A stretch of 64,000 bases of DNA. It comes from G965261475 sp965261475 [NCBI: bacterium]. GTDB lineage: Bacteria > SAR324 > XYD2-FULL-50-16. The stretch is from the NCBI GenBank assembly GCA_965261475.1, contig OZ253454.1:682001-746000 (forward strand). Reading direction: 5' to 3'. Numbering within the stretch: position 1 is the stretch's first letter; each line of letters opens with the position of its first letter. Positions 21,093-33,827 of the stretch are shown here, piece by piece. The translations under genes and the position numbers were made by a program. A model generated the notes under the pieces. It had not been told where the DNA came from. It did no database searches and worked only from the letters and a program-made list of their open reading frames with translations.

Positions 21093-21265
21093 TTTTTATT
21101 TGCATAATTTTATTAAATTTTTAAATTATATCAAAATTTTTTGACGCAAAAAACACTATTATTTTTTGTTTTTCTGGTAGCACTAATATTATTAGTTGTA
21201 TTTAGCATAAAATCTTGCTAGAGGCGTTATCTGCCTATTTTTGAGCTTTTATTTTTTTTTATGTT

Positions 21266-21301
21266 TTTTAGTTACGATAATGGCTCTTATCGTAACTAAA
21301 A
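21266..21301. repeat. Perfect 15-bp hairpin with 6-nt loop
   Basis: Arms 21266-21280 and 21287-21301 are exact reverse complements (core TTTAGTTACGATAA), with loop tggctc. T-runs lie before the left arm and A-residues after the right arm, the opposite of an intrinsic terminator on either strand. It is therefore more likely an operator, a mobile-repeat relic or an RNA element than a terminator. Confidence 0.7.
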
Positions 21302-21405
21302 CCTATATTAAAAATCAGAGCTCAATTTTTACTAGCTTCTTGATGATATTTTTTTTTCTATTGCTGACACATATAGATAAAAATTTGTTTTTTATAAATT
21401 TTTAA

Positions 21406-21434
21406 TTTACACTTAAAAAAACCTTTATTAGTAT
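21406..21434 (+). promoter_or_regulatory. Candidate sigma-70 promoter for the GmrSD-like gene
   Basis: TTTACA (21406-21411) and TAGTAT (21429-21434) are separated by 17 nt, each matching five of six consensus bases. The predicted start would be near 21441, giving a leader of about 44 nt. The -10 box lies inside the left arm of the 21425-21455 dyad, so a repressor bound there would block transcription. This is pattern matching only, in AT-rich DNA. Confidence 0.35.
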
Positions 21435-21455
21435 AAGCAATCATTATACTAATAA
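21425..21455. promoter_or_regulatory. Operator-like 12-bp inverted repeat upstream of the GmrSD-like gene
   Basis: Perfect arms ttattagtataa (21425-21436) and ttatactaataa (21444-21455) flank a 7-nt spacer. The half-site ACTAATA/TATTAGT also forms the small dyad at 21182-21196. The repeat ends 29 nt before the ATG and overlaps the candidate -10 box. A regulator-binding site is a reasonable inference; no regulator gene is adjacent. Confidence 0.45.
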
Positions 21456-21484
21456 TTGACATTAATCTTTATAAAAAAACTAAT

Positions 21485-23245
21485 ATGGGAAAATTTGTAG
21501 ACATATCAATAAAAGATATAATGGAAAAGCTAAATCATAGTTATTTTTTACCTGATATTCAAAGGGAATATGTTTGGTTGGAAAATAAAAAAGATAAAAA
21601 AATCGAACAGCTTTTTCATTCGATTTTAGAAGGTTATCCTATTGGTTCATTTTTATTTTGGAAACTAAAAAAAGACGATATTGAAACAGATGAAGATACA
21701 AAAGAAGATTCTGAAAAGTTAAATTTTAAATTGTATAAGTTTATAGAAAATTATGATGAAAGAGAACATCATAATGTTAAAATAAATATCGAGCAAATAA
21801 ACTCTGACAATTTATCAATAGTGCTTGATGGTCAACAAAGATTAACTTCGCTTTACATAGGGCTGAAAGGAACCAGAAAATTTAAAAAAAAACATTACCC
21901 TTTTGAGCAGTCTAGTTCATATGAAGAAAAACAGCTTTTCTTAAATTTAAGATACCAACCTAAAGAAGAAGATACAGATCTTAAGTTTGGTTTCGATTTT
22001 TTTACAAAAGGAGTAATCCTTAAAATTGACAACGAAAATTATTGGTTCAGAGTTAGTAAAATTTTAGACTTAGAAAATATTACAAGTTATGCAAAAGAAA
22101 ATAATCTTTCTGAAAGTGAAACAAACATTTTAGAAAAACTGAAGAATGCTATTTGTAAAGAAAAATTGATTTCATATTTTGAAGAAAACAAAAAAAGCCT
22201 TGAAAGAGTATTGAGTATTTTCATTAGAGCTAATAGTAGTGGTATTAAACTATCCTATCCTGATTTATTAATGTCGATTTTAATTGCTAACTTCTCGAGT
22301 GACATTCGCTCTTTAATGAACGAGTTTGTTGATTCATTAAGAGATGCAGGGTTTGGAATAATGGGTCGTGATCAAGTACTAAAAACCTGTTTAGTTTTAA
22401 CCGAAAGCAATCCTAGATTTCAGCTTAAAAATTTTAAAAAAAATAACATTACTAAAATTGAGGAAAATTGGGGCACAATAGACGACGCAATATTTAAGGC
22501 TTGTGAACTATTAAAAGAGTTTGGTTACTCAGATAATAAATTGTCTTCTCCTTATATTTTATCGATTGTAGCTTACTATATTTTCAAAAAGAAACCTCTT
22601 CATCAAGAAGATAAAAATGAATTACTCAAATTTGTACGCAACGCACAAATCAAAAGTTATTTTACAGGGTCAACAGATAGAAAATTAGAAGTTGTAGCTA
22701 ACTTTATTAGAAATGAGGATCATTTTAAATCTGTAAACAATCAACTTGCTGTTAGCGAAGTTTACCCTCTCAAAATCTCAAGTTATGACATTGACGGAAT
22801 GCCGGATTGGGAATATGGTAACCCTGCTATACTGCCAATTTTACAAATTTTATATCCAAATCTAGATTATAAAAATTCAGATTTTCATATAGATCATATA
22901 TATCCAAAATCTAAATTCAACAAAAAAAATAAAGAATTAGCGGAAGAGTATTTATGGAAAGCTCCAAGGAAAGCTGGTTATTTATATAATCTTCAACTAC
23001 TGGAAGGAAAAGACAATAACGAAAAAAGAGCAAAAGACCCAGAAAAATGGTTAGAGCAATATTTTTTAAAGGACAAAGAAAAAATTAAAGCTTATAAAGA
23101 GAGAAATTACATCAAAGGGGATTTTGACTTGGAGTGGAGCAAAATTAAAGAATTTGACGAATATCGAGTAAAAAAAATAAAATCTAAGCTAAAAGAAATA
23201 TTGCTCACTGAAAAAGAAATATCAGAGGCTATAGATAACCAGTGA
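21485..23245 (+). CDS. DUF262/DUF1524 protein, GmrSD-like predicted type IV restriction or defence nuclease
   Basis: Single 586-residue protein with the two modules of GmrSD/SspE-type defence enzymes. The N-terminal DUF262 shows DIQREYVW (24-31), SILEGYPIGSFLFWKL (46-61), the nucleotide-handling VLDGQQRLTS (113-122) and FIRANSSGIKLSYPDLLMS (247-264). A helical linker follows. The C-terminal DUF1524 carries the HNH-like HIDHIYPKS (His468, Asp470, His471) and YNLQLLEGKDNNEK near 500-515. Known relatives cut phage DNA with modified or phosphorothioated bases, using NTP hydrolysis. No methylase, Dnd/Ssp genes or partner nuclease is next to it. It stands alone between core genes, behind a dyad-rich gap and before a terminator, suggesting acquisition as a single cargo gene. 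The target modification is unknown. Confidence 0.88.
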   Translation: MGKFVDISIKDIMEKLNHSYFLPDIQREYVWLENKKDKKIEQLFHSILEGYPIGSFLFWKLKKDDIETDEDTKEDSEKLNFKLYKFIENYDEREHHNVKINIEQINSDNLSIVLDGQQRLTSLYIGLKGTRKFKKKHYPFEQSSSYEEKQLFLNLRYQPKEEDTDLKFGFDFFTKGVILKIDNENYWFRVSKILDLENITSYAKENNLSESETNILEKLKNAICKEKLISYFEENKKSLERVLSIFIRANSSGIKLSYPDLLMSILIANFSSDIRSLMNEFVDSLRDAGFGIMGRDQVLKTCLVLTESNPRFQLKNFKKNNITKIEENWGTIDDAIFKACELLKEFGYSDNKLSSPYILSIVAYYIFKKKPLHQEDKNELLKFVRNAQIKSYFTGSTDRKLEVVANFIRNEDHFKSVNNQLAVSEVYPLKISSYDIDGMPDWEYGNPAILPILQILYPNLDYKNSDFHIDHIYPKSKFNKKNKELAEEYLWKAPRKAGYLYNLQLLEGKDNNEKRAKDPEKWLEQYFLKDKEKIKAYKERNYIKGDFDLEWSKIKEFDEYRVKKIKSKLKEILLTEKEISEAIDNQ

Positions 23246-23289
23246 GCAATACCACTGATACACCCCCTGATACGCCCAGTATACGCTCT

Positions 23290-23321
23290 AAAGAGAATAA
23301 ATTTATATTTATTCTCTTTTT
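23290..23321 (+). terminator. Rho-independent terminator after the GmrSD-like gene
   Basis: Arms aagagaataaa (23291-23301) and tttattctctt (23308-23318) pair perfectly around a 6-nt loop, with one further A-T pair outside. A five-T run (23317-23321) completes the signal. It lies 45 nt after the stop codon and before the 3' end of the convergent permease gene. Confidence 0.75.
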
Positions 23322-28026: not shown

Positions 28027-29097
28027 TTACAAATAAATTCTTTGCTCTTGTGAGTTAAAAAAGAAAATTTTATTTTTTTTTAAAGCAAGATTGTAGAAGT
28101 TGTTTTTTTTTAACAATAAATCTTTATCGCATGCTAGAAGTAGTTCTTGATTGCTTATTTGGAATTTATAATAGCTTTCAGAGCCTAAGTATTCAGAATA
28201 TAAAAATTTTGCTTTTAAAAATCCAGTATCACTAACAAATAGATGGTGCGGACGAATAGCAAAAATAAATTTTTTAGGTGGTAATTTTTTTTTTATTCCT
28301 AGTTCACTAAACTCTATATTCCCATAATCTCCATTAACTATCTTGTTTTCAATTTGACCTCTAAAAATATTTATAGGAGGATTGCCTACAAATTTTGCTA
28401 CAAAAAGATTTTGGGGATTTTGATAAATTACTTGCGGAGTTCCAGATTGCATCATTTTCCCTTTAGAAAAAACAAAGATTCTATCAGCCAAAGTCATAGC
28501 TTCTTGCTGGTCGTGAGTCACATAAATAGTAGTTTTTTTAACAAAATTGTGTAGTTCGCGAATATAGCCTCTCATGTTTTCTCTAAGACGAGCATCTAAA
28601 TTACTCAAGGGCTCATCCAATAAAAAAATTTCTGGTTTTCGAACTAGCGCCCTGCCTATTGCCACTCTTTGTTTTTGACCACCTGATAATTGGCTAGGTA
28701 ACCTTTGTAATAAATCTATAATTTCTAATTTTCTTGCTGTTTTCTCAATAATGTTTTTTTTATCTTGTTTAGATATTTTAAGAATATCTAGAGGATATTT
28801 TAAATTTTCATAAACCGTAAGGTGTGGATACAAAGAATAAGTTTGAAAAACCATTGCAGTTTTCCTATTTTTAGGAATTTCCCAAGTAATATTCTTACCA
28901 TTAGCAAAAATACTTCCTCCACTTACATCATCTAATCCAGCAATTAGTCGCAAAGTTGTAGTTTTTCCACACCCGCTAGGACCCACAAAAACTATAAATT
29001 CTCCTTTTTGGATTTGGAAAGAAGTCTCAGATAAAGCAGTAGTTTGACCAAAATTTTTTTTAACATTTTGAAATTCTATAGAAGGTATTTTTTTCAC
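28027..29097 (-). CDS. UgpC/MalK-type sugar or polyol ABC ATPase (orphan)
   Basis: ATPase of 356 residues with a C-terminal TOBE regulatory region, as in MalK/UgpC. Walker A GPSGCGKTT is at 39-47, the Q-loop follows as VFQTYSLYP, signature LSGGQKQR is at 138-145, and Walker B IFLLDEPLSNLDA is at 158-170. It has no cognate permeases or binding protein in the window. It starts with GTG inside the stop of the giant gdh gene (GTGA, 4-nt overlap), so it is translated in the same operon as glutamate dehydrogenase. MalK-type ATPases can serve several importers, which would explain an orphan; that is inference. Confidence 0.9.
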   Translation of the reverse strand: MKKIPSIEFQNVKKNFGQTTALSETSFQIQKGEFIVFVGPSGCGKTTTLRLIAGLDDVSGGSIFANGKNITWEIPKNRKTAMVFQTYSLYPHLTVYENLKYPLDILKISKQDKKNIIEKTARKLEIIDLLQRLPSQLSGGQKQRVAIGRALVRKPEIFLLDEPLSNLDARLRENMRGYIRELHNFVKKTTIYVTHDQQEAMTLADRIFVFSKGKMMQSGTPQVIYQNPQNLFVAKFVGNPPINIFRGQIENKIVNGDYGNIEFSELGIKKKLPPKKFIFAIRPHHLFVSDTGFLKAKFLYSEYLGSESYYKFQISNQELLLACDKDLLLKKNNFYNLALKKNKIFFFNSQEQRIYL

Positions 29098-32000
29098 TTT
29101 TTCTGTAAAAAATTGTTTATTTCTTCAATAAGCACAGCAGCGACATGTAGAGTTTCTCGAGCATTCTTTGTAAAAAAATCTTCTTGCAGCTGAATTTTTT
29201 GTAAAAGAGAGTTAGCAGGAAAATCAAAAAATTCTTGCGGAGATGCTAAAAACTTTTGATATTTTTTTAAAATTTGTTTATAAATTTTCCATTTTAAGCT
29301 ATTGATATTTTGTAAAAGTAATCCTACATGTTGCTTGCCGTAACTAGATACTACTTTCATTTTTATGAGCCTATCACCTATAGATAATCCAAAAATACGA
29401 TAGGTTTTTTGAAAAATTTCTTCTACTAGTTGTTTTGTTAATTTTTGCTCGTCTACCAGGTAAATCTTTTCTAAAGGGTTGATGCTTGTTTGTTGTGTTT
29501 TTAATAATTGTAATAATTCTGCTTGAGACACAATATTACTAATGGATAATTTAGGGTAGTGCGTAATTACTAAATTTTGATATTTGCTAATTAAATCAAA
29601 AGAAATTGCTTGTTCTTTGAGGTTTAATAACAACCATAAAGTAATTTTTCTTAAAAATACCTCTAACTGACGAAGGTGAGTATAAGCAGTTAAAATATTT
29701 TTTCCTTGGTAGTAGGTAAAAATTGCTTTTCTAATTTTTTTGCCGTAAAAAATATTATCTGCAATAATATAGGTTTTTAAAATTAAATCGTATGGTCTAT
29801 CACTCCATTGTTGTAATAGAGTTAAGAAAGGAATACCAAATTGGTTAATTTGCTGATTGATAATACGACTAGTGATAATCTCCCTATAAAGTTGGTGTTT
29901 ATGTTTTAAAAGAGAGAATTTTTTTGACAGACTGGAAGGAAAATAATCTAAAAAATATTGCTCGCAAAATTTATTATCTGGAAGATTAGAATTTAAAATT
30001 TTACGAAAAAAAAACATTTTAGTGTAGCTTAGTAAGCTACAAAGATAAGGTCTAGGAATACCATCTCCATATTCTAGCAATGCAGATTTGCTCAATAATT
30101 TTTCTTTGTTTGGGTTAATAATTTTTTCTTCAACCAAAAAATCTATAGTATCTAAATATTCGGATAAATTTTCTTTAGAATCTTGCATAGACATGCTTAA
30201 AATATAGCTTTGGTCTTGATTATTTTTTAAACAAGCAGCGGTTACTTCGTCTATCAAAGTAGCAAGCAATTTAACTCTTTCTTTCCCCGCTTTAATTTTT
30301 TTCTTTTCTATCAGCCTCTCCATCATAATTTTAATATTTACCTCATGGTCAGACATATCGACTCCCGCAGAATTATCTATAGAATCAGCGTTTATTTTGC
30401 CCCCTTGTAGTGCAAATTCTAACCTAGCTGATTGAGTAAATCCTAAATTGCCACCTTCTCCTACAATTTTGGTTTTTAAATCAGCAGCATTCACCCTCAC
30501 AGAATTATTATTCGGGTCTCCAACATCTAGTTGAGTTTGATTCTTAGATTTAACATAAGTTCCAATGCCGCCATTCCAAAGTAGATCTACTTTTGCACTT
30601 AGCAACATACGAATGAGTTTTTCTCCACTCACACTATTTTCTTTTGTTTGTAAAAATTCTTTCATACTACTAGTTAGAGTAATAGATTTTGAGTTTCTCT
30701 TAAAAACACCTCCTCCTTTGCTAATTAATTTTGTTTTGTAATCCACCCAGCTACTGCCAGCAGTTTGAAACAATCTTTTTCTCTCCTGCCAAGCAGAATC
30801 ATCTGTTGGCGGATAAGGGTCAATAAAAATATGTAGATGGTTAAAAGCTCCTTTTAATCTAATTTGATGGCTTAAAAGCATAGCATTACCAAAGACATCT
30901 CCTCCCATGTCTCCTATCCCTACTACAGAAAAATCTTCGTTTTGTATGTCAATTCCTAATTCTAAAAAATGAATTTTTATACATTCCCAAGCCCCTTTAG
31001 CCGTAATTCCTATTTCTTTATGGTTATAACCTATAGAGCCACCAGAAGCAAAAGCATCTCCTAGCCAAAAATTTTGTGCAAGGCTAATTTCATTTGCTAC
31101 ATCGGAAAGATGGGCGGTACCTTTATCTGCTGCTACTACAAGGTAAGGATCATTGTCATCGTAACGCACAACCTGTTTCGGAGGAATAACCTCTCCTTGT
31201 ATAAAATTCCCTGTGATAGATAGTAAAGATTGTACAAAACGACGGTAGTGTTTTTCTACTACTTGAAACATCTCTTTTCTAGTTGTAAAAGATTCGTCAA
31301 TAATAAATCCTCCCTTGGAGCCTTCTGGGACAATCACAGTATTTTTAAGCATTTGTGCTGACATTAAACCTAGTATTTCTGTACGAAAATCGTCTTTTCT
31401 ATCAGAAAACCTTAAGCCACCTCTAGCAATTTTGCCGCCTCTTAAATGTACGCCAGTCATGTCAACGCCATAAACAAAAATCTCATACATAGGTTTAGGA
31501 TTTTGCATCATATCTACTTCACTACAATTTATTTTAAAAGCAAGAGCTTCACGAGCATTGATATTATAATAATTAGTTCGTAGCATAGCTTGGACAAAAT
31601 TATAAAGATTGCGAAATATACCATCTTCAGTAAGTGTTTTCAGTTTAGCTATTTGTACTAATATTGCTTGCTCAGCTTGTATTATTTGAGTTTTTCTATT
31701 TTTTTTTTCAAAAGTAAATTTTGCGGTAAAATAATCTAATATACTATAACTAATTTTGGGGTTAACAAGAATAATACAATCAAAAATATTGCTATCTATA
31801 CTACAACCTAATTGATACATATATTTTTTGAGAGCTGTAAATAAATTGACTTGTTTGTAATTAAATCCAGCACAAGTTACTAATCCGTTCAATTTTTCAT
31901 TTGCTAACTCCTTACTAAATAGAGCTAATATAGATTCTTGAATATGTTTTTTAAAATATTTATGCGATTCAATAGTAATTTGTTGATGTTTGACAATATA

Positions 32001-33827
32001 TGTATATTTATGGTAGATTTTGCCCTCTAGAGGTACTTTATAAGCAATTTCTTGCAACACATCTAAAGATAGGTTCTGTAAATTCGGTAAAATTTGGCTT
32101 AGATGATAAATTTTATAGGTATATAGAACAACTATTGATTTTTCTTCGTTTAGAGCAATCACATCTACATATTCCACAGATTTATCTACTACTAAATTAA
32201 AGTTCTCAATATCATAAATAGCTTGCGTGGTGTCGTTAGCAGCTTGATAAAATTTATTGAAAGCAGAAGAATAACGCTGCTTCATTTTATTAGCTACGAC
32301 ATGAGAAAAATGTTTCTCAAGTTTGTAAATTAGAATTTGTTGCCATTCTTCTATCAATTGTTTGACTTCTAATTCTATATTAGAGAGCATGGTGCTAGAG
32401 ATTTTATTTGTATCAAATTTAAAATAAATAAAATGGCATTGCACCGAGTTTCCATAGTAAAACCAATAAGATTTTTCAGCTTCTTGTTTTGTAGTTTTTG
32501 TCATTAATTGACTAACTCGTTTAAATTCTCTATCATCAAAATTTTCTACTGGAATATAGACAACCAATCTAGCATAGTTGACTTCAGCTATAGAATATAA
32601 ACTTGTTTCTACTTGACATAATTCCCAAATAAAAGGGCTTTTATACGCAAAAATTCTTAGCTCTTCTTTTTCCATACGAAAACATTCGTATTTAGGAAAA
32701 CGATTAAATAAATCTTTTAAGTGTTTAAAGTCGTGGCTATTCTCAACTAATCCTATATCTTTGACAATAGCGTTGAGCTTATAGCGTACCAAAGGAATAT
32801 CCATGATATCGGATAATTCAGATGCTCTAGTAAAGACTCCTGCTAAACAAAAAAAAGTTATTTTATCTGTATTTTTGTATACTTTTTTACCAAAAATATA
32901 AATCAATTTATCTGTAACATGAATTTTAGAACTATAACGAGATTCTGCAAAACTTACAGATAAGCTATTATTCTTAAAAATTGGTAGGTATTGCTCAATT
33001 TCTTCAACAAAATCTAGGTTTTGAATTTTTGCTAAATACGAAAATACTCCTAAATTATTATCAAAATCATTCCAAGTTAACTTTTTTTTACAAATTTTTT
33101 GACTAGAGATGCTATTTATCCCTAAAAGAATCATATTATCACTAGCAATCCATTCATAAAGTTGGCGTCGCTCGTTATCTCGTTGTTGATCTTGCGTAAA
33201 AAAAGTATCAGAATCTTTTAGGCTCCTTAGAGTATTCTGCATTGCATGAAAATCGTTAGTAGCTGCAATCAATCTGCTTAAAACATCGTAGATCTCTTCT
33301 TGTAATATTTTTGTATCTAATTCTGTAACATGAGAGCTGCTAACTAAGACGATAACGTAATTGTATTTTTGACAACCATGTTTCTTATTTAGTAAAATCT
33401 TAATATTTTTTTCTTGTTTTTCTACAAATAAAACAGGATGTGTTAGCTGTATAATATTTAAATTTTGTTTGCTATGGAAATAATTACGTAAACTATCTAC
33501 CACAAAGGGTCTATCTTCTAGTAAAACTTTTATAACAAAACGGTTTTGTTTCTCTTTTGTATGAGTGCTAATATCGCAACTGACATTGACAAAAAGTTCT
33601 TTATTTAAATTTTGAATAAATTGCTTATACAGTAAATAGACATGTTCATACAAGGTCTTGGTTTCATTATCTTGTAAAAATTTTATAGAATATTTTGAAA
33701 CTAATTTTTCTGCAAAACTTAAAAAGTTATCATTTTTTTTTTTGCATAATTTTTTAAATTTTTGCAAATTGCTTAGTATACACTTATCCCTTTCTTCTCT
33801 TTGGCGGGTAATAGTAGTAAATTTCAT
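29094..33827 (-). CDS. gdhB: Large NAD-dependent glutamate dehydrogenase (GDH-180 class)
   Basis: Oxidative deamination of glutamate to 2-oxoglutarate with NAD, a large cytosolic oligomer. The 1577-residue size and layout fit the proteobacterial GDH-180 class. The long N-terminal half contains ACT-like regulatory repeats (for example RFVIKVLLEDRPFVVDSLRNYF at about 75-97). The catalytic core is near 790-836 (GGKIARGGLRFSDRKDDFRTEI and KNTVIVPEGSKGGF). The dinucleotide-binding fold is near 965-985 (GIGDMGGDVFGNAMLLS). NGGIGTY and GEGGNLGFTQSARLEFAL follow. It would feed imported amino acids, such as those carried by the Aap-type systems here, into the TCA cycle. No SD is visible. The UgpC-like ATPase gene overlaps its stop by 4 nt. 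Confidence 0.96.
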   Translation of the reverse strand: MKFTTITRQREERDKCILSNLQKFKKLCKKKNDNFLSFAEKLVSKYSIKFLQDNETKTLYEHVYLLYKQFIQNLNKELFVNVSCDISTHTKEKQNRFVIKVLLEDRPFVVDSLRNYFHSKQNLNIIQLTHPVLFVEKQEKNIKILLNKKHGCQKYNYVIVLVSSSHVTELDTKILQEEIYDVLSRLIAATNDFHAMQNTLRSLKDSDTFFTQDQQRDNERRQLYEWIASDNMILLGINSISSQKICKKKLTWNDFDNNLGVFSYLAKIQNLDFVEEIEQYLPIFKNNSLSVSFAESRYSSKIHVTDKLIYIFGKKVYKNTDKITFFCLAGVFTRASELSDIMDIPLVRYKLNAIVKDIGLVENSHDFKHLKDLFNRFPKYECFRMEKEELRIFAYKSPFIWELCQVETSLYSIAEVNYARLVVYIPVENFDDREFKRVSQLMTKTTKQEAEKSYWFYYGNSVQCHFIYFKFDTNKISSTMLSNIELEVKQLIEEWQQILIYKLEKHFSHVVANKMKQRYSSAFNKFYQAANDTTQAIYDIENFNLVVDKSVEYVDVIALNEEKSIVVLYTYKIYHLSQILPNLQNLSLDVLQEIAYKVPLEGKIYHKYTYIVKHQQITIESHKYFKKHIQESILALFSKELANEKLNGLVTCAGFNYKQVNLFTALKKYMYQLGCSIDSNIFDCIILVNPKISYSILDYFTAKFTFEKKNRKTQIIQAEQAILVQIAKLKTLTEDGIFRNLYNFVQAMLRTNYYNINAREALAFKINCSEVDMMQNPKPMYEIFVYGVDMTGVHLRGGKIARGGLRFSDRKDDFRTEILGLMSAQMLKNTVIVPEGSKGGFIIDESFTTRKEMFQVVEKHYRRFVQSLLSITGNFIQGEVIPPKQVVRYDDNDPYLVVAADKGTAHLSDVANEISLAQNFWLGDAFASGGSIGYNHKEIGITAKGAWECIKIHFLELGIDIQNEDFSVVGIGDMGGDVFGNAMLLSHQIRLKGAFNHLHIFIDPYPPTDDSAWQERKRLFQTAGSSWVDYKTKLISKGGGVFKRNSKSITLTSSMKEFLQTKENSVSGEKLIRMLLSAKVDLLWNGGIGTYVKSKNQTQLDVGDPNNNSVRVNAADLKTKIVGEGGNLGFTQSARLEFALQGGKINADSIDNSAGVDMSDHEVNIKIMMERLIEKKKIKAGKERVKLLATLIDEVTAACLKNNQDQSYILSMSMQDSKENLSEYLDTIDFLVEEKIINPNKEKLLSKSALLEYGDGIPRPYLCSLLSYTKMFFFRKILNSNLPDNKFCEQYFLDYFPSSLSKKFSLLKHKHQLYREIITSRIINQQINQFGIPFLTLLQQWSDRPYDLILKTYIIADNIFYGKKIRKAIFTYYQGKNILTAYTHLRQLEVFLRKITLWLLLNLKEQAISFDLISKYQNLVITHYPKLSISNIVSQAELLQLLKTQQTSINPLEKIYLVDEQKLTKQLVEEIFQKTYRIFGLSIGDRLIKMKVVSSYGKQHVGLLLQNINSLKWKIYKQILKKYQKFLASPQEFFDFPANSLLQKIQLQEDFFTKNARETLHVAAVLIEEINNFLQKK

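What the first reader, a model, noticed from the sequence alone, without database searches (positions are those of the whole stretch)
21093..23321. Solitary GmrSD-like defence gene with its own regulatory dyads and terminator
A single DUF262/DUF1524 protein (DGQQR motif, HNH-like HIDHIYPKS) lies between a core biosynthetic operon and a transport operon, with the longest gene-free gap before it and an intrinsic terminator after it. No modification or partner genes are present. Known relatives (GmrSD, SspE) restrict phage with modified DNA. A lone gene of this kind, perhaps under repression, may be a compact defence unit acquired by transfer.
Basis: partly seen in the sequence, partly recalled or inferred. 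Interest (0 to 1): 0.65.

Follow-up and report, generated by a model that had tools for sequence, protein, structure and literature searches.

The report
A lone BrxU-like phage-defence enzyme
This is a stand-alone bacterial gene for an enzyme that probably cuts up the chemically modified DNA of invading phages; it is a distant relative of an already studied enzyme called BrxU, so it is a sound find but an ordinary one.

Summary
One ORF, 21485-23245 (+, 586 aa), lies between a core gene run and an ABC-transporter run; the longest gap between listed genes (392 nt) precedes it and a hairpin follows. The protein is a full-length BrxU/HEC-05-type GmrSD enzyme: 699.8 bits to PADLOC HEC-05, 33% identity to BrxU over 546 aligned columns, BrxU the top structural match (Z 29.7). 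The residues whose loss abolished BrxU activity (S42, Q101, R102, D474, H475) are all present. BrxU works alone, so a solitary gene is expected. Best reading: a nucleotide-driven, modification-dependent (Type IV) restriction enzyme; the DNA mark it reads is unknown. It is divergent (38% identity to the nearest row of the tree). Acquisition by transfer is likely: codon use is an outlier and 0 of 52 genomes of the SAR324 phylum carry a full-length copy, but no empty site could be shown. Of four perfect inverted repeats with arms of 11 or more in the window, three flank this gene; operator, terminator or recombination footprint remains open. Known kind, new member.

The parts
21485..23245 (+). 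BrxU/HEC-05-type GmrSD gene, 586 aa: N-terminal DUF262 NTPase/sensor domain and C-terminal His-Me/HNH nuclease domain
   Evidence: ORF; PF03235 97.9 bits; PADLOC HEC-05 699.8 bits; PDB BrxU phmmer 6.2e-76; structure Z 29.7 to 7p9k
21620..21622 (+). Ser46 codon, equivalent of BrxU S42 (dimer switch)
   Evidence: Alignment A1; BrxU mutants in PMC8565348 section 20
21827..21841 (+). DGQQR motif, residues 115-119 (equivalent of BrxU 98-102)
   Evidence: Invariant in 17 of 17 rows of A1 and 30 of 30 of A2, but my scripts picked relatives by this motif, so its invariance there is by construction
22892..22906 (+). DHIYP nuclease motif, residues 470-474 (equivalent of BrxU 474-478)
   Evidence: D470, H471 and P474 invariant in 17 rows of A1 and 30 of A2; not used to pick relatives
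21093..21484 (.). Intergenic gap before the gene, 392 nt, 20% G+C
21266..21301 (.). Perfect inverted repeat 1, 15-nt arms, 6-nt spacer; no T run after it on either strand, so not a standard intrinsic terminator
21425..21455 (.). Perfect inverted repeat 2, 12-nt arms, 7-nt spacer, ends 29 nt before the start codon; overlaps a weak promoter-like match (21406-21434)
   Evidence: promoter-like matches in the region 19 found, shuffles 13.9 sd 4.1
23290..23319 (.). Perfect inverted repeat 3, 13-nt arms, 4-nt loop, T run: likely terminator between convergent genes
   Evidence: not listed by the consensus scan
23200..23250 (.). Fourth hairpin spanning the stop codon, 11-nt arms, 29-nt loop

Best explanation
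A single-gene, modification-dependent (Type IV) restriction enzyme of the BrxU/HEC-05 branch of the GmrSD family. The DUF262 domain binds and hydrolyses nucleotide (Ser46, DGQQR) and senses modified DNA, which licenses the C-terminal His-Me nuclease (DHIYP) to cut the incoming DNA. By analogy with BrxU the marks would be modified cytosines. Shown here: family, predicted fold, and presence of the residues essential in BrxU. Inferred from BrxU: the nucleotide cycle, dimer-monomer switch and cleavage. Guessed: which modification it reads, and that it came by horizontal transfer.
For: HEC-05 699.8 bits over residues 1-575; BrxU itself is HEC-05, 776 bits. BLASTP 33% identity over 546 aligned columns. 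Kept: the equivalents of S42, Q101, R102, D474 and H475, whose loss abolished BrxU activity, and of D98, Q100 and N519 (mutants in PMC8565348 section 20). The equivalents of Q35, R38 and N485, dispensable in BrxU, differ. AlphaFold2 model, mean pLDDT 85.1; BrxU first by Foldseek (6.4e-31) and by VIA-align (Z 29.7, 538 aligned). BrxU alone restricts phage from a plasmid. Transfer: codon-use z 5.1, rank 2 of 56; 0 of 52 SAR324-phylum genomes with a full-length copy.
Against: 33% identity and a long end branch (1.58) in an open fork, so specificity cannot be carried over. Superposition on BrxU has rmsd 18 A over the whole chain and TM 0.47: domains match but their relative placement does not, which I put down to a monomer model of an intertwined flexible dimer. 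Pfam's DUF1524 model gives no hit. BrxU D41 is H45 here, Q35 is K39 where the other 16 rows of A1 have Q, and E528, whose loss weakened defence in cells, is K521. For transfer: G+C (28.1%) and third-position G+C are ordinary, and of two cruder codon measures one does not single the gene out while in the other it ranks third lowest of 56.
Confidence: 0.85

Rival explanations
1. Same fold, different mark: the enzyme reads another modification (phosphorothioate as SspE, or a base other than cytosine) and nicks or cuts accordingly.
For: The branch is divergent: its best PADLOC model is PDLC04152, while BrxU and 16 other relatives scanned score best with PDLC04151. Related DUF262 enzymes differ in specificity (PMC10952713 passages).
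Against: SspE models score 21.1 bits or less and SspE structures Z 6.5 to 12 against 29.7 for BrxU. No Ssp or Dnd match among the 20 window genes scanned.
Confidence: 0.2
2. Half of a two-protein system like TgvAB, with the partner elsewhere in the genome.
For: TgvB is a DUF262-DUF1524 protein that needs TgvA (PMC11411939 passages). The rest of the genome is not held.
Against: Neither neighbouring gene is a DUF262 protein; HEC-05 (= BrxU) is stated to function independently.
Confidence: 0.07
3. A decaying or silent gene left from an old transfer.
For: Solitary; no strong promoter; no full-length copy in 52 of 52 SAR324-phylum genomes.
Against: 586 codons open and the BrxU-essential residues intact.
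Confidence: 0.08

Closest known systems
BrxU of Escherichia fergusonii pEFER (PDB 7P9K, 7P9M; PADLOC HEC-05)
   Same: Size (586 and 587 aa), DUF262 plus His-Me nuclease in one chain, the residues essential in BrxU, predicted fold
   Different: 33% identity; here among core and transport genes, whereas brxU lies between brxC and pglX of a BREX operon; a four-residue insertion before the helix that carries Ser46 and a longer loop after about residue 62
Eco94GmrSD / GmrS-GmrD
   Same: Family, motifs, fused single-chain form (from papers)
   Different: Not aligned here; PMC10952713 calls BrxU a GmrSD homologue of low sequence similarity (passage)
SspE
   Same: DUF262 and DUF1524-like domains (passages)
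   Different: Weak sequence match (21.1 bits); acts with SspABCD phosphorothioate marking, no such gene among the 20 scanned
TgvAB of Vibrio cholerae
   Same: GmrSD-like, acts on modified phage DNA
   Different: Two proteins, both needed (passages)

Membership tests
GmrSD family (Type IV) | N-terminal DUF262 domain with DGQQR | tested here: met
   PF03235 97.9 bits, cut-off 33.2; DGQQR at 115-119
GmrSD family (Type IV) | C-terminal DUF1524 / His-Me nuclease with DHIYP-type motif | tested here: met
   DHIYP and its D and H kept, full-chain structure match to BrxU; HNH domains of Cas9 match only weakly (Z about 4 to 6.3). Against: no Pfam GmrSD_C hit; BrxU itself is below that cut-off
BrxU / HEC-05 | Full-length match to a HEC-05 model | tested here: met
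   PDLC04152 699.8 bits, residues 1-575
BrxU / HEC-05 | Residues essential in BrxU kept (S42, Q101, R102, D474, H475) | tested here: met
BrxU / HEC-05 | Nucleotide-dependent cutting of modified-cytosine DNA; dimer to monomer switch | not testable with these tools
   Needs purified protein
BREX-associated brxU | Embedded in a BREX operon | tested here: not met
   Neighbours are argC, MOSC and ABC transporter genes; compare L132
SspE | Best match to SspE models | tested here: not met
   SspE 21.1 bits against 699.8 for HEC-05
SspE | sspABCD nearby | tested here: inconclusive
   None among 20 of the window's genes; the rest of the genome is not held
TgvAB | Adjacent second DUF262 protein | tested here: not met
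   Both neighbours are of other families
Mobile cargo | Absent from the same site in close relatives | tested here: inconclusive
   Synteny with the nearest genomes ends after pheT; no close relative found
Mobile cargo | Atypical codon use | tested here: met
   Chi-square z 5.1, rank 2 of 56 genes; G+C and one cruder measure do not show it
dif (XerCD) site | Inverted repeat 1 is a chromosomal dif or dif-like site | tested here: inconclusive
   Six-base spacer and inner ATAA/TTAT recall dif (from memory). Strand-corrected skew differs little across the site (0.033 and 0.065); neither this site nor the recalled dif consensus occurs within 3 mismatches in 52 SAR324-phylum genomes, so the lineage's true dif is unknown

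The most novel reading that the evidence does not exclude
The gene is a one-gene defence cassette bounded by long perfect palindromes: inverted repeat 1 (dif-like spacing) marks site-specific insertion, and the repeats on either side move or control the gene as a unit without an integrase or regulator of its own.
Probability: 0.06. Interest if true: 0.6.

Novelty: new member of a known kind. Interest (0 to 1): 0.22.

Why it matters
It carries the BrxU/HEC-05 Type IV enzymes into a divergent, A+T-rich lineage that seems close to SAR324, in a branch (PADLOC model PDLC04152) of which I know no tested member (paper searches limited). If active it would widen the known range of modified-DNA restriction and hint that phages of this lineage modify their DNA. 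The cluster of palindromes round it is a testable lead on regulation or mobility.

Tried and rejected
Host genome search: none is held. PheS scan of genome contigs for syntenic relatives: 133 relatives, 80 kept, best 55% identity (SAR324); gatA-pheS-pheT order shared by L001 and L002 but nothing beyond, so no empty-site test. Single-sequence scan of viral contigs: 13 stretches matched a pattern, none a relative; the alignment query gave 87 relatives, 80 kept, 79 loci, of which 29 went into the fold alignment. Matches in phages: 4 of 50,697 records; in plasmids: 391 of 72,556; all under 60% identity. Ten further genomes of mixed phyla: 0 of 10.

Dif-site reading of inverted repeat 1: considered for its spacer and core; not supported, not excluded. 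The cumulative GC skew peaks at 20-24 kb, but at four-fold sites the strand-corrected difference is small (0.033 and 0.065), intergenic skew is alike on both sides, and the change of gene strand has p 0.15, so gene orientation may explain the peak. Integron attC reading: dropped by eye, with no test. Target-site duplication: only A+T-rich, imperfect direct repeats between the two flanks. Rfam and tRNA: nothing in the window. The mads3 and other PADLOC hits of the gene at 28027-29097 look like generic ABC-ATPase matches. Paper searches 'HEC-05 + PADLOC' and 'SAR324 + restriction + phage defense' returned none; a search for either 'HEC-05' or 'Hma-embedded candidate' returned 7 papers, 2 of them on the subject. 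Tree: the window row has a long branch in an open fork, so no donor can be named.

Full report
What is there. The ORF at 21485-23245 (+) encodes 586 aa. Before it lies a + strand run ending in cinA, an argC of the TIGR01851 type and a MOSC protein; after it come - strand amino-acid ABC transporter genes (permease and binding protein tested). The gap before the gene (392 nt) is the longest between the 56 CDSs listed and holds no ORF longer than 54 aa.

What the protein is. Pfam gives GmrSD_N at 97.9 bits. PADLOC gives HEC-05 at 699.8 bits, with SspE far behind at 21.1 bits. The only PDB sequence match up to E 1 is 7p9k, 6.2e-76, which is BrxU (named). BrxU taken from plasmid pEFER (L132) is itself HEC-05 and shares 33% identity over 546 aligned columns. 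PMC11411939 (passages) states that HEC-05 equals BrxU and acts independently. The residues whose change abolished BrxU (S42, Q101, R102, D474, H475; PMC8565348, abstract and sections 19 and 20 read) map to S46, Q118, R119, D470 and H471 here. These are invariant in the 17 rows of A1; for DGQQR that is partly by construction, since relatives were picked by it. BrxU N519 maps to N512; E528 maps to K521, and BrxU E528A cut DNA in vitro but defended weakly. The AlphaFold2 model (30 sequences, mean pLDDT 85.1, pTM 0.77) has BrxU as first match (Foldseek 6.4e-31, TM 0.47; VIA-align Z 29.7, 538 aligned, rmsd 18.0). I take the large rmsd to reflect domain placement. DndI (Z 12.1) and SspE (Z 6.5 to 12.0) follow.

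How it most likely works. As for BrxU: nucleotide binding and hydrolysis in the DUF262 domain gate a His-Me nuclease that cuts DNA with modified cytosines (PMC8565348; PMC12409352, first of four parts read; PMC13390438, passages). BrxU needs no partner. The modification read by this protein is not known.

Where it sits in the family. It scores best with PDLC04152, while BrxU and 16 other relatives scanned score best with PDLC04151. The nearest of 45 other rows in the tree is 38% identical (L157), and the window row has a long end branch in an unresolved fork. So it is divergent, and no donor can be named.

Host and origin. No genome is held for the window. PheS is closest to a SAR324 genome (55%). 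The large dehydrogenase at 29094-33827 (NAD-glutamate dehydrogenase, name recalled) matches its best genome by E-value at 38% in the SAR324 phylum (40 of 49 genomes matched) and at 35% in the phylum of a Legionella genome, taken as Pseudomonadota (232 of 349 matched). ArgC matches 9 of 52 SAR324-phylum genomes at E 2e-72 or better, 41-47% identical (41 of 52 with any match), and gatA-pheS-pheT order is shared with two of those nine. I infer a divergent relative of a SAR324 subgroup. Copies of the gene: SAR324 phylum, 0 of 52 full length (2 with a short DUF262 match); Pseudomonadota, 6 of 398 at E below 1e-59, one of them split by stops (24 of 398 with any match); phylum of G456 (Bacillota by its record title), 12 of 398 at E below 1e-29 (36 of 398 with any match); phylum of G007 (Bacteriovorax by its record title), 1 of 144 at 1.3e-26 (2 with any match). 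Codon use: chi-square z 5.1, second of 56 genes after one 2.7 times as long; the next is 2.6. G+C is ordinary (28.1%). Together these favour acquisition, but no empty site was seen.

The dyads. Perfect inverted repeats with arms of 11 or more and spacers 0-20 number four in the window; three flank this gene. Shuffles seldom give one in so short a stretch (6 of 500 for the gap, 0 of 1000 for the stretch after the gene), though the cut-off was chosen after seeing the repeats. Repeat 3 looks like a terminator between convergent genes. Repeat 2, just before the gene, is placed like an operator, but the promoter match it overlaps is weak (9 of 12; such matches in the region are about 1.2 sd over shuffles). 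Repeat 1 lacks a T run on either side and is not a standard terminator. Its six-base spacer recalls dif; tests for that gave no support. No regulator gene is adjacent.

Verdict. A real, intact, probably acquired BrxU-type Type IV restriction gene: a new, divergent member of a known kind. The palindromes are the part that remains unexplained.

Noticed in passing
23241-23289: A short G+C-rich tract at the end of and just after the gene (52%; 0.8% of 40-mers in the window are as rich), holding the motif CTGATACNCCC twice (23255, 23267) and nowhere else in the window.
   Followed up: partly
21266-21301, 21425-21455, 23290-23319: Three of the four perfect inverted repeats with arms of 11 or more (spacer up to 20) in the window cluster round one gene; roles unproven.
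   Followed up: partly
window 1-64000: A 30% G+C host that seems related to a SAR324 subgroup (nine held genomes of 2.7 to 7.8 Mb; the host's own size is unknown). The window has tryptophan, pyrimidine and arginine biosynthesis genes (roles recalled except argC), so it is not an obvious dependent symbiont.
   Followed up: partly
L112 / L131 (G160): A relative of the gene in a genome of the Pseudomonadota sample is split by stop codons into two pieces.
   Followed up: no
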